Positions 21,970 through 25,917 of a stretch of DNA of 64,000 nucleotides are shown piece by piece (position 1 is the first letter of the stretch; each line of letters begins with the position of its first letter). Below the pieces are notes generated by a model. It worked only from the letters and a program-made list of their open reading frames with translations, made no database searches and had not been told where the DNA came from. The position numbers were made by a program, and so were the translations under genes. Source of the stretch: an uncultured Maribacter sp. (GTDB taxonomy: Bacteria > Bacteroidota > Bacteroidia > Flavobacteriales > Flavobacteriaceae); NCBI GenBank assembly GCA_947493885.1, contig CANLTE010000003.1:372001-436000 (forward strand), given 5' to 3'.

Positions 21970-22348
21970 AAAAATATAAAACAATCCTTTATGTTTCATA
22001 AAATACTCTTTATTAAAAAAAATAATTTTATCCTCGGTTTTTAAAAAAAATGTATTTCATTTGTAATTGAAAAGCTTTTCATAAAATAGCTTTTAGCTGA
22101 ACAAATTGAAACCTGTTTATAAATTCGGGCTTTTGAAAATTAGGAAGTCATATTCAAAAGCAGCTCAACGATTGAGTAACCGAAATTTAGAGCTAACTTC
22201 CGTATATAAACTTACATCTACGTTTTTATATCAACACTTTTTTTTAAAAGTGCCATTTCAAATTATGATTTAATAGTTGCCATTATTACCTAATTAGAGA
22301 CATTTCGTCCTTTCTAGTTTTTAATGTTTACAACTAATTGAGTTATAA
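21970..22348 (+). other. 379-base leader region before the arginine decarboxylase gene
   Basis: It holds no gene. The centre (22120-22201) folds into a compact three-way junction with a pseudoknot, listed separately. At 22235-22252 CACTTTT and AAAAGTG form a short hairpin with a TTTT loop. A possible promoter, TTTG at 22060 with TAGCTTTT at 22087, is off consensus in both spacing and sequence. Confidence 0.5.
22120..22201 (+). ncRNA. Candidate structured leader RNA upstream of the polyamine operon
   Basis: Four nested pairings are visible. P1 pairs 22120-22128 with 22180-22189 (9 pairs, one bulged A). P2 pairs GCTTTTGAA (22129-22137) with TTCAAAAGC (22153-22161). P3 pairs CTCAA (22164-22168) with TTGAG (22172-22176) around a CGA loop, extendable by one G-T pair. 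The 15-base P2 loop contains GGAAGT (22143-22148), which can pair with ACTTCC (22196-22201) just after P1. Such a three-way junction with a loop-tail pseudoknot resembles riboswitch or ribozyme architecture, but I could not match it to a named class. The ATG of the decarboxylase is 147 bases downstream. Direction is inferred from the G-T pair and the downstream gene. Confidence 0.5.
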
Positions 22349-23746
22349 ATGAATACTAAATATATTGATTTAATTAATCAAACTTTTGATTTTCCACAGG
22401 AGGAATTTTCCCTTGAAGAAGATTATCTGCGTTTTCATAACATTAACGTAATGGAACTTGTAGAAAAGTATGGTTCTCCGCTAAAATTTACCTACTTACC
22501 ACAAATTAGCAAAAACATACATAAGGTAAAAAATTGGTTTAAAAGTGCATTTGAGAAAAACAATTATAATGCTAAATATTATTATTGTTACTGTACTAAA
22601 AGTTCTCATTTTAAATACGTTTTAAACGAAGCGCTAAAAAACGATGTCCATATTGAAACCTCTTCGGCGTTTGATATTGACATTGTTACCAATTTAAAAA
22701 GGGAAGGGAAAATATCAGACGAAACTTATATAATAAGTAATGGTTTTAAAAGAGACGAATACATTACTAAAATCACAGAATTAATTAATAGCGGTCATAA
22801 AAACTGCATTCCCATAATAGACAATTATGAAGAAATAAATTTATTATCAAGTAAAATTATTTCTTCATATGATATAGGTATTCGTATTGCTTCTGAGGAA
22901 GAACCAAAATTTGAGTTTTACACCTCTCGTCTCGGTATTGGATATAAAAATATACTACCTTTTTATAACAAACAAATAAAGGAAAACAGTAAAGTTACCC
23001 TTAAAATGTTGCATTTTTTTATAAACACAGGAATAAAGGATAATGCTTATTACTGGAATGAACTTCAGAAATGTTTAAAGGTATATGTAAGTTTAAAAAA
23101 GGTATGTCCTACTTTAAATAGCCTAAATATTGGAGGTGGATTTCCTGTTAAAAATTCTTTAGGATTTAATTTTGATTATGAATATATGGTTGAAGAAATC
23201 ATAAATCAAATTAAAATAACATGTACCGAAGAAGGCGTTGACGTACCTAATATTTTTACTGAATTTGGAAGTTACACTGTTGGAGAAAGTGGTGGAGCAG
23301 TATATGAAGTACTTTATCAAAAGCAACAGAATGATAGGGAAAAGTGGAACATGATTAACTCATCATTTATTACAACCTTACCAGATACTTGGGCAATAAA
23401 TAAACGCTTTGTAATGCTTCCAGTTAACCGTTGGAATGATACTTATGAAAGAGTTTTACTTGGAGGTTTAACATGTGATAGTGATGATTACTATAATAGC
23501 GAGCAACATATAAACGCTATTTATTTACCTAAATACAATCAAAATAAGCCATTGTACATTGGTTTTTTTAATATAGGCGCTTACCAAGAAACAATAGGAG
23601 GTTATGGAGGGCTTCAGCACTGCTTAATACCAAATCCTAAACATATTTTAATAAATATAGACGAAAACGGGAATGTAATAACTGAGTTATTTAGTGAACA
23701 GCAAAAAAGTGAAGAATTACTTAAAATTTTAGGCTATGAAAACTAG
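22349..23746 (+). CDS. speA: Arginine decarboxylase, alanine-racemase-fold (biosynthetic)
   Basis: This PLP enzyme converts arginine to agmatine and CO2. Group IV decarboxylases bind PLP through a Lys in a Y-x-x-K motif, seen here as YCYCTKSSH (Lys84). Further marks are the glycine-rich NIGGGFPVK phosphate site, FTEFGSYTVGESGG, and the C-terminal LGGLTCDSDDYY region with its catalytic Cys-Asp. At 465 residues it is the compact Bacteroidetes form, much shorter than the E. coli SpeA (about 660). It overlaps the agmatinase gene by 11 bases, and a deoxyhypusine-synthase-like gene follows, so it begins a polyamine operon. Confidence 0.9.
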   Translation: MNTKYIDLINQTFDFPQEEFSLEEDYLRFHNINVMELVEKYGSPLKFTYLPQISKNIHKVKNWFKSAFEKNNYNAKYYYCYCTKSSHFKYVLNEALKNDVHIETSSAFDIDIVTNLKREGKISDETYIISNGFKRDEYITKITELINSGHKNCIPIIDNYEEINLLSSKIISSYDIGIRIASEEEPKFEFYTSRLGIGYKNILPFYNKQIKENSKVTLKMLHFFINTGIKDNAYYWNELQKCLKVYVSLKKVCPTLNSLNIGGGFPVKNSLGFNFDYEYMVEEIINQIKITCTEEGVDVPNIFTEFGSYTVGESGGAVYEVLYQKQQNDREKWNMINSSFITTLPDTWAINKRFVMLPVNRWNDTYERVLLGGLTCDSDDYYNSEQHINAIYLPKYNQNKPLYIGFFNIGAYQETIGGYGGLQHCLIPNPKHILINIDENGNVITELFSEQQKSEELLKILGYEN

Positions 23747-24668
23747 AACCTACGCAGGTATTCCAGAAGAATACTCCAAGCTGGAAAAAGCAAAAATTGT
23801 ACTAATACCAGTTCCATTTGACGGAACAAGCACTTGGCAAAAAGGGGCAGATAAAGGTCCAGATGCATTTTTGGAGGCGTCGGAAAACATGGAACTTTAT
23901 GACATAGAAACCAACTCAGAAGTTTATAAACATGGTGTCTATTTAACCAATCCAATTGCAGAAAGTGCAACACCAGAGTCAGTAATTAATACTGTTCATG
24001 AAATAACCAAAAAATATATAAAACGTAATAAGTTTGTTACTTTAGTAGGTGGAGAACATTCTATTTCAATTGGTTCAATAAGAGCGTTTAACGAATGTTA
24101 TAACAATTTAACCGTTCTTCACATAGATGCTCATGCGGATTTAAGAGCTTCTTATCAAGGTTCTTCTTTTAACCATGCTTGTGCAGCTTATGAAGCTAGT
24201 TCAACAACAAATTTGATTCAGGTTGGGATACGTTCAATGGATGCCATTGAAAAAACTGTGATGGATCAAAACAAAACGTTTTTTGCCCATGATATGGTGG
24301 AAGATGATTCTTGGGTTGACTCAGCCATAGACTTAATGACGGAAAATGTTTTCATAACTTTTGATTTAGATGCTTTAGACCCTTCTATTTTACCAAGTAC
24401 AGGAACACCAGAACCTGGAGGATTGTTTTGGTATGAAACCTTGTCTTTTTTAAAAAAGGTTTTTGAAGAAAAAAATGTTGTAGGTTTTGACATTGTTGAG
24501 CTTTGCCCAAACGAAAATGATAAATCTTCCAATTTTTTAGCAGCAAAATTGTATTATAAAATGCTGAGTTATAAATTTAAAAGGGGGTATTTAAAGGGGA
24601 CTTTTGATAACGATTATAGCCCTGTACTTCCTCATAAAACAACCAAAAAATTTAATGATGATGAGTAA
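23736..24668 (+). CDS. speB: Agmatinase (ureohydrolase family)
   Basis: This is a dinuclear manganese ureohydrolase that splits agmatine into putrescine and urea. The three metal-binding signatures of the family are present: GGEHS, HIDAHADLR and TFDLDALDPS, with STGTPEPGG after the last as in agmatinases. At 310 residues it has the normal length. Its start overlaps the arginine decarboxylase end and its stop overlaps the start codons of the next gene. The three are therefore translationally coupled and form arginine to agmatine to putrescine to a further product. Confidence 0.92.
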   Translation: MKTRTYAGIPEEYSKLEKAKIVLIPVPFDGTSTWQKGADKGPDAFLEASENMELYDIETNSEVYKHGVYLTNPIAESATPESVINTVHEITKKYIKRNKFVTLVGGEHSISIGSIRAFNECYNNLTVLHIDAHADLRASYQGSSFNHACAAYEASSTTNLIQVGIRSMDAIEKTVMDQNKTFFAHDMVEDDSWVDSAIDLMTENVFITFDLDALDPSILPSTGTPEPGGLFWYETLSFLKKVFEEKNVVGFDIVELCPNENDKSSNFLAAKLYYKMLSYKFKRGYLKGTFDNDYSPVLPHKTTKKFNDDE

Positions 24669-25635
24669 TAAAGGTTCTATTTCTAACTTTATAGAAAAGT
24701 ATTATTTACATTTTAATGCGGCAACGGTTGTTGATGCCGCTAAAGCTTATGAACATCAGATAAACAAAGGAGCCAAAATGCTAGTTTCTTTAGCGGGGGC
24801 TATGAGTACTGCCGAATTAGGGAAAATATTCGCTGAAATGATAAGACAAAATAAAGTTCAAATTATTTCTTGTACAGGAGCTAACCTTGAGGAGGATATT
24901 ATGAATCTGGTTGCGCACTCGTATTACAAACGTGTTCCTAATTATAGAGATTTAACACCTCAGCAAGAATGGGATTTACTTGAAAACGGACTTAATAGAG
25001 TTACTGATACTTGCATTCCAGAGGAAGAAGCTTTTAGAAGATTACAACAACATATTTATAAAATATGGAAAGAGGCTGACAATAGAGGTGAACGTTACCT
25101 TCCTCATGAGTTTATGTATAAAATGTTGCTTTCAGGAGTTTTAGAAGAGTATTACCAAATAGATTTGAAAGATTCGTGGATGTATGCTGCTGCAGAAAAG
25201 AATTTGCCTATGGTAGTTCCCGGTTGGGAAGATAGTACAATGGGAAATATTTTTGCCAGTTATGTTCTTAAAGGAGAACTTAAATCAAGTACCGTAAAAT
25301 CTGGAATAGAGTATATGACCTTTTTGGCAAACTGGTACACGGAAAATTCTGAGAACGGAATTGGTTTTTTTCAAATAGGTGGTGGTATTGCAGGAGATTT
25401 TCCTATATGTGTTGTACCAATGTTGTATCAAGATATGGAAAGAACGAATACGCCTTTTTGGAGTTATTTTTGCCAGATTAGTGATTCTACAACCAGTTAT
25501 GGTTCATATTCTGGAGCCGTTCCTAATGAAAAAATCACATGGGGGAAACTAGATATTAATACCCCAAAGTTTATAATAGAAAGTGATGCGACAATTGTTG
25601 CTCCACTAATATTTGCCTATTTATTAAACATGTAA
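24661..25635 (+). CDS. Deoxyhypusine synthase-like protein, probable homospermidine synthase
   Basis: The protein is homologous to eukaryotic deoxyhypusine synthase. The NAD- and polyamine-binding features are visible: LVSLAGAMSTAELG, SCTGANLEEDI, FFQIGGGIAGDFPI, and the motif ITWGKLD whose Lys (296 from this start) aligns with the catalytic Lys329 of human DHS. Bacteria lack eIF5A, so protein modification is unlikely. Several bacterial and plant DHS relatives are homospermidine synthases, joining two aminobutyl units. Three consecutive ATGs (24655, 24658, 24661) overlap the agmatinase stop, and the last is chosen arbitrarily. The position right after a putrescine-producing pair supports the function. 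Confidence 0.85.
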   Translation: MSNKGSISNFIEKYYLHFNAATVVDAAKAYEHQINKGAKMLVSLAGAMSTAELGKIFAEMIRQNKVQIISCTGANLEEDIMNLVAHSYYKRVPNYRDLTPQQEWDLLENGLNRVTDTCIPEEEAFRRLQQHIYKIWKEADNRGERYLPHEFMYKMLLSGVLEEYYQIDLKDSWMYAAAEKNLPMVVPGWEDSTMGNIFASYVLKGELKSSTVKSGIEYMTFLANWYTENSENGIGFFQIGGGIAGDFPICVVPMLYQDMERTNTPFWSYFCQISDSTTSYGSYSGAVPNEKITWGKLDINTPKFIIESDATIVAPLIFAYLLNM

Positions 25636-25641
25636 GAAAAT

Positions 25642-25917
25642 ATGAATCGAGTAATTGTTGATTATCAGAAGTTAAATAATAAAATATTAAACCTGCTGGT
25701 AGAAAAATTTCCAGATGGATATGATGATGATGACATTATTTCTTTTAGAAATAGCAAAAATGAAGTAGTTGAAACTGTAGAGGTTCGTACTGATGATACT
25801 ATTTATCTTGTTAAAATTGGTACTCGCTTAACAAAAGCAATGGAGCGCTTTACCTTTGAAGATTATGATGAGAATATTGATAATCAAGATTTACGAGGTG
25901 ATGATACCGGATTATAG
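25642..25917 (+). CDS. Small acidic conserved hypothetical protein
   Basis: The 91-residue product is strongly acidic, with Asp/Glu clusters near residues 26-32 and over the last 25 residues. It begins 6 bases after the DHS-like gene on the same strand, so it belongs to the polyamine operon by position. It contains no motif that I recognise, no signal peptide and no membrane segment. Its 3' end overlaps the convergent pseudouridine synthase gene by 34 bases. Binding of a cationic partner would fit its charge, but that is speculation. Confidence 0.65.
   Translation: MNRVIVDYQKLNNKILNLLVEKFPDGYDDDDIISFRNSKNEVVETVEVRTDDTIYLVKIGTRLTKAMERFTFEDYDENIDNQDLRGDDTGL

What the first reader, a model, noticed from the sequence alone, without database searches (positions are those of the whole stretch)
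22120..22201. Unclassified three-way-junction RNA with loop-tail pseudoknot upstream of the polyamine operon
Four mutually compatible pairings are directly visible: a 9-pair closing stem with one bulge, a perfect 9-base stem, a 5-6 base hairpin, and a 6-base pairing between the P2 loop (22143-22148) and the tail just 3' of the closing stem (22196-22201). The P1 and P2 strands abut without a spacer, as in coaxially stacked riboswitch helices. It sits 147 bases before arginine decarboxylase, the first gene of a three-enzyme polyamine pathway, so control by arginine, agmatine or a polyamine is a natural hypothesis. I could not match it to purine, TPP, preQ1, SAM or hammerhead cores. It could be an undescribed regulatory RNA, or a known Flavobacteria motif I failed to recognise.
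Basis: partly seen in the sequence, partly recalled or inferred. Interest (0 to 1): 0.72.

Follow-up and report, generated by a model that had tools for sequence, protein, structure and literature searches.

The report
Folded RNA inside polyamine leader ORF
Ahead of their polyamine-making genes, many Flavobacteriaceae carry a short leader gene whose own RNA folds into a conserved three-way junction with a pseudoknot; it looks like an undescribed switch for polyamine synthesis.

Summary
In 60 speA leaders, 13 of 31 pairs show two-sided compensatory changes; in 77 more diverse copies 29 of 31 do, including 5 of 6 pseudoknot pairs, which the search model did not contain. Inside the RNA, synonymous change is four times lower than in speA; the ORF tail shows moderate peptide-level constraint. 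Most leader peptides end in -[RQ][IV] (46 of 60), with stop TGA in 57 of 60. No Rfam family matches. The element occurs in 192 of 397 sampled genomes of the family; in 63 of 64 returned loci speA follows directly. Five second copies precede genes tied to the polyamine neighbourhood. Most likely it is a cis-acting attenuator of the polyamine operon, in which the fold gates a leader peptide that stalls. Ligand, direction and mechanism are untested.

The parts
22094..22098 (+). P0, 5' arm (UAGCU), upstream of the leader start codon; pairs with 22191-22195
   Evidence: 87.8% of cells paired, 5 of 5 pairs with two-sided changes
22191..22195 (+). P0, 3' arm (AGCUA), in codons 29-30 of the leader ORF, next to the pseudoknot strand
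   Evidence: L077 has TTGCT / AGCAA
22124..22128 (+). P1 core, 5' arm (UUCGG)
   Evidence: 95.8% of cells paired, 4 of 5 pairs with two-sided changes
22180..22184 (+). P1 core, 3' arm (CCGAA)
22129..22137 (+). P2, 5' arm, abutting P1 without a spacer
   Evidence: 85.1% of cells paired, 9 of 9 pairs with two-sided changes
22153..22161 (+). P2, 3' arm
22163..22168 (+). P3 hairpin, 5' arm (innermost pair often not formed in relatives)
   Evidence: 79.1% of cells paired, 6 of 6 pairs with two-sided changes
22172..22177 (+). P3 hairpin, 3' arm
22143..22148 (+). Pseudoknot strand in the P2 loop (GGAAGU)
   Evidence: 95.7% of cells paired, 5 of 6 pairs with two-sided changes, though absent from model R1
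22196..22201 (+). Pseudoknot partner (ACUUCC), directly 3' of P0
22106..22273 (+). Leader ORF, 55 codons, start TTG, stop TAA (TGA in most relatives); codons 1-32 overlap the RNA; peptide ends VPFQIMI
22274..22348 (+). 75-base gap between leader stop and speA start; no conserved intrinsic terminator seen
22056..22063 (+). TTCATTTG, resembling the Bacteroidetes -7 box (TAnnTTTG, recalled); would place the transcript start shortly upstream of the element
   Evidence: sequence, similar stretches in relatives; inference
22349..23746 (+). speA, arginine decarboxylase family, first gene of the operon
23736..24668 (+). speB, agmatinase
   Evidence: TIGR01230 over its cut-off
24604..25635 (+). deoxyhypusine-synthase-like protein, probably homospermidine synthase (ORF as listed; true start probably later)
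   Evidence: PF01916 over its cut-off; NCBIfam models below theirs
25642..25917 (+). 91-aa acidic protein of unknown function, fourth gene; relatives in 58 of 80 speA loci

Best explanation
It is a two-module cis-regulatory leader of the polyamine operon. Module 1 is an RNA fold (P0, the P1-P2-P3 three-way junction, and a P2-loop/tail pseudoknot) that closes around the start codon of a 55-codon leader ORF; when folded it should hinder initiation there. Module 2 is the leader peptide, whose conserved last residues and UGA preference suggest that the ribosome stalls at termination. How often the ORF is translated, and how long the ribosome dwells at its stop, would decide whether expression runs on into speA, most likely as feedback by a polyamine or a pathway intermediate. 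Shown here: the fold, the ORF, nucleotide-level constraint on the RNA part, moderate peptide-level constraint on the tail, and linkage to speA. Inferred: gating of initiation, stalling at the stop, the ligand, the direction of control, and Rho as effector.
For: Covariation in all five helices. Start codon six codons before P1 in 74 of 77, open frame in 76 of 77. Synonymous divergence 0.171 in the RNA part, 0.636 in the tail, 0.713 in speA; pN/pS 0.54 in the tail (57 loci). Stop TGA in 57 of 60 leaders against 9 of 267 long ORFs of the same loci. C-terminal [RQ][IV] in 46 of 60 leaders against 6 of 347 long ORFs, or 35 of 46 against 6 of 255 when repeats are collapsed. Leaders of some genomes without the RNA share that end. 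speA directly downstream in 63 of 64 whole-genome loci. Second copies at genes tied to the operon's neighbourhood. rho present in the genome. No conserved terminator in the gap. Precedents: Salmonella speF orf34 (PMC6386406, abstract), E. coli mdtU, speFL and Rho termination in the speA 5' UTR (PMC7815308, passages).
Against: No expression, probing or translation data. The window's own leader stops at TAA and ends QIMI. Arenibacter and Cellulophaga leaders stop at TAG or TAA. Of five second copies only 1 keeps the [RQ][IV] end and none has TGA, and L146 has no full ORF, so the RNA can persist without the peptide end. Tail constraint is weaker than in speA (pN/pS 0.54 against 0.13). The leader stop lies a median of 75 bases (52-205) before speA, too far for a stalled ribosome to cover its start directly. 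Rho dependence is untested. The leaders and long ORFs compared are related to one another, so the counts are not independent.
Confidence: 0.45

Rival explanations
1. A metabolite riboswitch: the pseudoknotted fold is an aptamer for a polyamine, agmatine or arginine, and the leader ORF is only the expression platform whose initiation is switched; the peptide sequence matters little.
For: The RNA is kept in second copies whose peptide ends are mostly not kept, and in L146 without a full ORF. Unpaired UUU 22116-22118 and T22188 are conserved beside a purine-rich pseudoknot strand, which could form base triples. A spermidine riboswitch of another fold exists (PMC10853860, abstract and passages).
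Against: Junction nucleotides vary and few unpaired positions are conserved. The peptide tail is under some selection, and its end is shared with leaders that lack the RNA.
Confidence: 0.27
2. A platform for a protein or ribosome component: the fold is bound by a regulatory protein, or traps the ribosome as some ribosomal-protein leaders do, rather than sensing a small molecule.
For: Conservation lies in helices and pseudoknot rather than in junction nucleotides.
Against: No candidate binding protein was looked for or found; the gene context is metabolic.
Confidence: 0.13
3. The leader ORF encodes a functional small protein (for example one that binds SpeA), and the RNA fold merely tunes its synthesis.
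For: Moderate purifying selection on the tail; similar ORF length, about 50-63 codons, across diverse copies.
Against: The RNA-overlapping half shows little amino-acid-level constraint beyond the nucleotide one (pN/pS 0.85). Flavobacterium leaders align with the others at most at the C-terminus. No Pfam or NCBIfam hit near a cut-off.
Confidence: 0.08
4. No RNA function: the pairing is a by-product of conserved coding sequence.
For: P1-P3 and the pseudoknot lie inside an ORF.
Against: P0's 5' arm lies outside the ORF and covaries with codons inside it; synonymous sites are constrained; some compensatory changes alter amino acids.
Confidence: 0.01

Closest known systems
speF leader of Enterobacteria (SpeFL / orf34)
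   Same: Short leader ORF upstream of a polyamine-forming decarboxylase; its translation interferes with Rho termination and unfolds an inhibitory structure (PMC6386406, abstract); ribosomes stall just before its stop codon with ornithine (PMC7815308, passages).
   Different: No relation to this peptide was noted; different phylum. Here a biosynthetic speA operon, and a covarying three-way junction with pseudoknot spans the start of the ORF itself.
E. coli mdtU-mdtJI and yqgB-speA leaders
   Same: uORFs ahead of polyamine-related genes with 3' ends or Rho termination in the leader; MdtU conserved most at its C-terminus (PMC7815308, passages).
   Different: No comparable pseudoknotted junction in the passages read; different phylum.
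Spermidine riboswitch (SAM-I variant)
   Same: Leader RNA of polyamine synthesis genes, including speB; genetic off switch (PMC10853860, abstract and passages).
   Different: SAM-I aptamer fold, Gram-positive hosts, premature transcription termination; this region matches no Rfam family.
TnaC-type termination-arrest leaders
   Same: Small leader peptide with conserved residues, stalled by a metabolite (PMC8429421, search listing with the start of its abstract; the rest recalled).
   Different: No sequence relation known; arrest is not shown here.
Bacteroidetes motifs of the 104-RNA survey (Bacteroid-trp, Flavo-1 and others)
   Same: RNA motifs of the same phylum found by comparative genomics (PMC2864571, passages with parts of Table 1).
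   Different: None is placed at speA in the passages read; the Rfam families made from that survey did not match.

Membership tests
Any Rfam 15 family | Score over the curated gathering cut-off | tested here: not met
   0 matches in the window; five matches far below their cut-offs
SAM-I variant spermidine riboswitch | SAM-I aptamer fold | tested here: not met
   no SAM-I match listed
SAM-I variant spermidine riboswitch | Transcription termination switched by spermidine | tested here: inconclusive
   no conserved terminator seen in single-sequence folds of 60 gaps; ligand not testable here
Polyamine-responsive arrest leader (SpeFL/MdtU type) | Conserved uORF upstream of a polyamine gene | tested here: met
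   (conservation of the frame; translation itself not observed)
Polyamine-responsive arrest leader (SpeFL/MdtU type) | Conserved last residues before the stop | tested here: met
   [RQ][IV] in 46 of 60 and 32 of 47 further speA leaders; amino acids of the RNA-overlapping half are even more alike, through nucleotide constraint
Polyamine-responsive arrest leader (SpeFL/MdtU type) | Ribosome stalling at the end of the ORF in response to a metabolite | not testable with these tools
   needs toeprinting or ribosome profiling
Polyamine-responsive arrest leader (SpeFL/MdtU type) | Rho-dependent termination downstream | not testable with these tools
   rho gene present, nothing more
Antizyme-type programmed frameshift | Two overlapping frames joined at a shift site | tested here: not met
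   one frame runs through the RNA to the stop in 76 of 77 copies
Metabolite riboswitch | Strongly conserved unpaired nucleotides forming a pocket | tested here: inconclusive
   unpaired columns at 80% or more: start codon U, G and the next A, UUU 22116-22118, T22188
Metabolite riboswitch | Selective ligand binding | not testable with these tools
   needs in-line probing

The most novel reading that the evidence does not exclude
An undescribed class of regulatory RNA in which a ligand-sensing pseudoknotted aptamer and a ribosome-arrest peptide are written in the same nucleotides, so that one leader reads two signals (metabolite through the fold, metabolite or translation state through the peptide) to set polyamine synthesis across about half of the sampled Flavobacteriaceae.
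Probability: 0.22. Interest if true: 0.86.

Novelty: new variant of a known kind. Interest (0 to 1): 0.68.

Why it matters
I found no description of RNA-level polyamine control in this group in the searches named in the report. This would be a leader in which RNA structure and coding sequence are under simultaneous but separable selection: peptide end without the RNA (Flavobacterium), RNA mostly without the peptide end (second copies). It offers a natural system to test how a structured RNA and a leader peptide jointly control an operon in bacteria that lack Shine-Dalgarno sequences (PMC6847099, abstract as listed), and it points to two unknown small proteins as candidate members of a polyamine regulon.

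Tried and rejected
Folding energy as evidence: too weak. RNAalifold's own consensus keeps P1, most of P2 and four pairs of P3, but pairs other stretches in place of P0 and the pseudoknot (it draws no pseudoknots); the named structure was therefore counted directly. A start-codon hairpin (22099-22103 / 22114-22118) can form in most leaders but has no good covariation support (33 of 500 shuffles reach it). Frameshifting: rejected, single open frame. Intrinsic terminator in the gap: none conserved, though single-sequence hairpins occur, most clearly in the group of L004, L009 and L015. A pocket in the three-way junction: junction positions vary. Further copies in the own genome: only matches at E 4.8 and 7.7. 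Distribution beyond the family: 5 of 395 genomes of a phylum sample match, all five in the window's own family; all 25 rows shown are of that family and 370 rows are not shown, and strict filters were used, so absence elsewhere is not established. L164 (E 0.99) lies inside an unrelated long coding gene and was dropped.

What went into the counts: A1 holds the window and 59 of 80 named loci; the other 21 lacked the core. A3 came from 75 hand-chosen sources: the divergent copies plus a part of the A1 loci (25 rows), leaving out near-duplicates and L045, L048 and L157, which match weakly. A3 was fitted to the nested stems by model R1, so the counts for P0-P3 lean towards that structure; those for the pseudoknot and for A1 do not. 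L055, L057 and L078 were left out of the rate test (57 of 60 used). Double changes on the tree use Fitch parsimony on a tree of the same alignment, where 149 pair-breaking changes are inferred too. ATP-grasp-like genes after three second copies looked like a pattern; Pfam found ATP-grasp domains in two and nothing in the third, and it was not pursued.

Full report
WHAT WAS CLAIMED AND WHAT IS THERE. Neither the whole window at curated thresholds nor the region at E up to 10 matches an Rfam family beyond weak, below-threshold hits. The folding energy of the isolated stretch is not impressive (z = -1.84), so the case rests on comparison.

COMPARISON. Eighty speA loci of named genomes were fetched, the best 80 of 589 candidates. 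A fuzzy search found the core in 59 of the 80 and in the window. The 21 without it are 7 Arenibacter-type leaders with a similar ORF but changed RNA, 10 Flavobacterium-type leaders with a different 59-codon ORF, 1 with only 42 bases of upstream sequence, and 3 in which I saw no such ORF. On A1, 13 of 31 pairs have two-sided changes and 95.4% of cells pair.

WIDER SET. A covariance model of the nested stems only (R1) found the element in 188 of 397 sampled genomes of the family. In a phylum sample 5 of 395 matched, all in the window's own family; 370 rows of that sample are not shown, so how far it reached outside the family is not known. A second model (R2) found 192 of 397 and only the window copy in the own genome. 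An alignment of 77 copies chosen for diversity (A3) gives 29 of 31 pairs with two-sided changes, 244 such cells against a shuffled mean of 79.3, and a covariation score of 0.366 against 0.055-0.135 in slid registers. The pseudoknot was not in R1, yet 95.7% of its cells pair and 5 of its 6 pairs change on both sides. By parsimony on a tree of A3, 142 pair-keeping double changes are inferred against 6-29 in slid registers; 149 pair-breaking changes are inferred as well. A3 was fitted to the nested stems; the pseudoknot and A1 were not.

THE ELEMENT IS INSIDE A LEADER ORF. All 60 leaders with the core have one open frame through it, with TTG (50), ATG (7) or GTG (3) at the same place. In A3 the start codon lies 18 bases before the P1 codon and in frame in 74 of 77 (not in L146, L155, L160), and counted from that P1 codon the frame stays open for 44-57 codons in 76 of 77; L146 is the exception. 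In the window this is 22106-22273, TTG to TAA. Two constraints can be told apart (57 loci). In the 26 codons of the RNA part synonymous divergence is 0.171, against 0.713 in speA (lowest 26-codon window of speA 0.567, computed on 30 of the loci), while in the last 18 codons it is 0.636. pN/pS is 0.85 in the RNA part, 0.54 in the tail and 0.13 in speA. So the first half is held mainly by RNA, the tail moderately by peptide. P0 ties the 5' UTR to codons 29-30 and covaries in all five pairs, which coding alone cannot explain.

THE PEPTIDE END. The leader stop is TGA in 57 of 60 A1 leaders, against 9 of 267 ORFs of at least 250 codons in the same loci. In A3 it is TGA in 56, TAA in 13 and TAG in 7 of 76. 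The last two residues are [RQ][IV] in 46 of 60 against 6 of 347 long ORFs of L001-L080. In A3, 19 of 25 rows from A1 loci, 32 of 47 other speA leaders and 1 of 5 second copies have that end. These sequences are related, so the counts are not independent. Of 30 genomes without an RNA match, 18 have a speA homologue; among the 15 whose speA start I could place, 8 have an upstream ORF ending in [RQ][IV] and 10 one ending in I or V, picked by eye from the listed ORFs. With the more permissive model three of the RNA-negative loci give weak matches below E 0.01 (L215, L049, L048), so remnants may exist. The peptide end thus appears more widespread than the RNA. The window's own leader ends QIMI with TAA, so it is not a perfect example.

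GENOMIC CONTEXT. In 63 of 64 loci returned by the models (L082-L145, the window's own L101 among them) speA begins about 119-223 bases downstream on the same strand; the remaining one, L114, is a second copy in a genome whose own speA copy lies beside it (strands). Five second copies were found. L146, L150, L151:2039-2156 and L152:2077-2190 stand before a ~100-residue protein with a putative signal sequence; L147 stands before a paralogue of the 91-residue fourth gene of the operon, followed by a RimK-like gene. Two of those small proteins and the 91-residue paralogue were scanned and have no Pfam or NCBIfam match near a cut-off. Relatives of the small protein occur in 53 of 199 family genomes, for example a few kilobases downstream of the speA element on the same strand in G070, G133, G173 and G175, and in G213 next to the operon itself. 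The 91-residue gene is found in 58 of 80 speA loci. So the second copies sit on genes tied to the polyamine neighbourhood.

HOW IT MOST LIKELY WORKS. The start codon lies between P0's 5' arm and P1. A ribosome initiating there would have to open P0, so the folded state should lower leader translation (inference). A ribosome that translates on unfolds P1-P3 and ends at the conserved peptide terminus, where the UGA preference and the last residues suggest slow termination (inference). The gap to speA has a median of 75 bases (52-205) and no conserved terminator, and rho is present in the genome, so Rho-dependent attenuation or later RNA folding is a natural effector (inference; precedents in PMC6386406 and PMC7815308). 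The ligand is most likely a polyamine or pathway intermediate because of context only. The two modules can be lost separately, which suggests that each does a job.

WHAT IS KNOWN. Polyamine-linked leaders with stalling peptides (speF orf34, mdtU) and one spermidine riboswitch (SAM-I variant, PMC10853860) are published. My searches for a speA leader, leader peptide or structured RNA in Bacteroidetes or Flavobacteria listed no paper whose title or shown abstract describes this element; one search matched 1,980 papers of which 10 were listed, so it says little. The library holds open PMC papers only. PMC6386406 was seen as outline and abstract; PMC10853860 as outline, abstract and passages; PMC7815308, PMC2864571, PMC2659441 and PMC6847099 as passages. 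The verdict is a new variant of a known kind of control, built on an RNA fold that is not in Rfam.

Noticed in passing
25642-25917: 91-residue acidic protein without Pfam or NCBIfam match, fourth gene of the operon; relatives in 58 of 80 speA loci. A paralogue in G353 has its own copy of the RNA element upstream (L147).
   Followed up: partly
L151:1484-1786 (minus strand); also behind the second copies in L146, L150, L152: Small protein of ~100 residues with putative signal sequence (ATYDGYEDGTYYFTD in L151) behind second copies of the element; relatives in 53 of 199 family genomes, some a few kb downstream of the speA element.
   Followed up: partly
L151:2039-2498: Two copies of the element stand back to back within 460 bases, one ahead of speA and one ahead of the small protein on the other strand.
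   Followed up: partly
22116-22118 and 22188: Unpaired U's conserved in diverse copies, near a purine-rich pseudoknot strand; possible base triples.
   Followed up: no
Leaders of L065, L066, L068, L070, L071, L072, L074, L075, L079, L080: A different leader ORF (59 codons, in L072 with a longer first reading) ending NIRV-TGA upstream of speA, without this RNA fold.
   Followed up: partly
22070-22094: AAAAGCTTTT ... AGCTTTT directly before and overlapping P0 in the window, with a similar stretch in relatives such as L004 and L015; it could form a 5' hairpin competing with P0.
   Followed up: no
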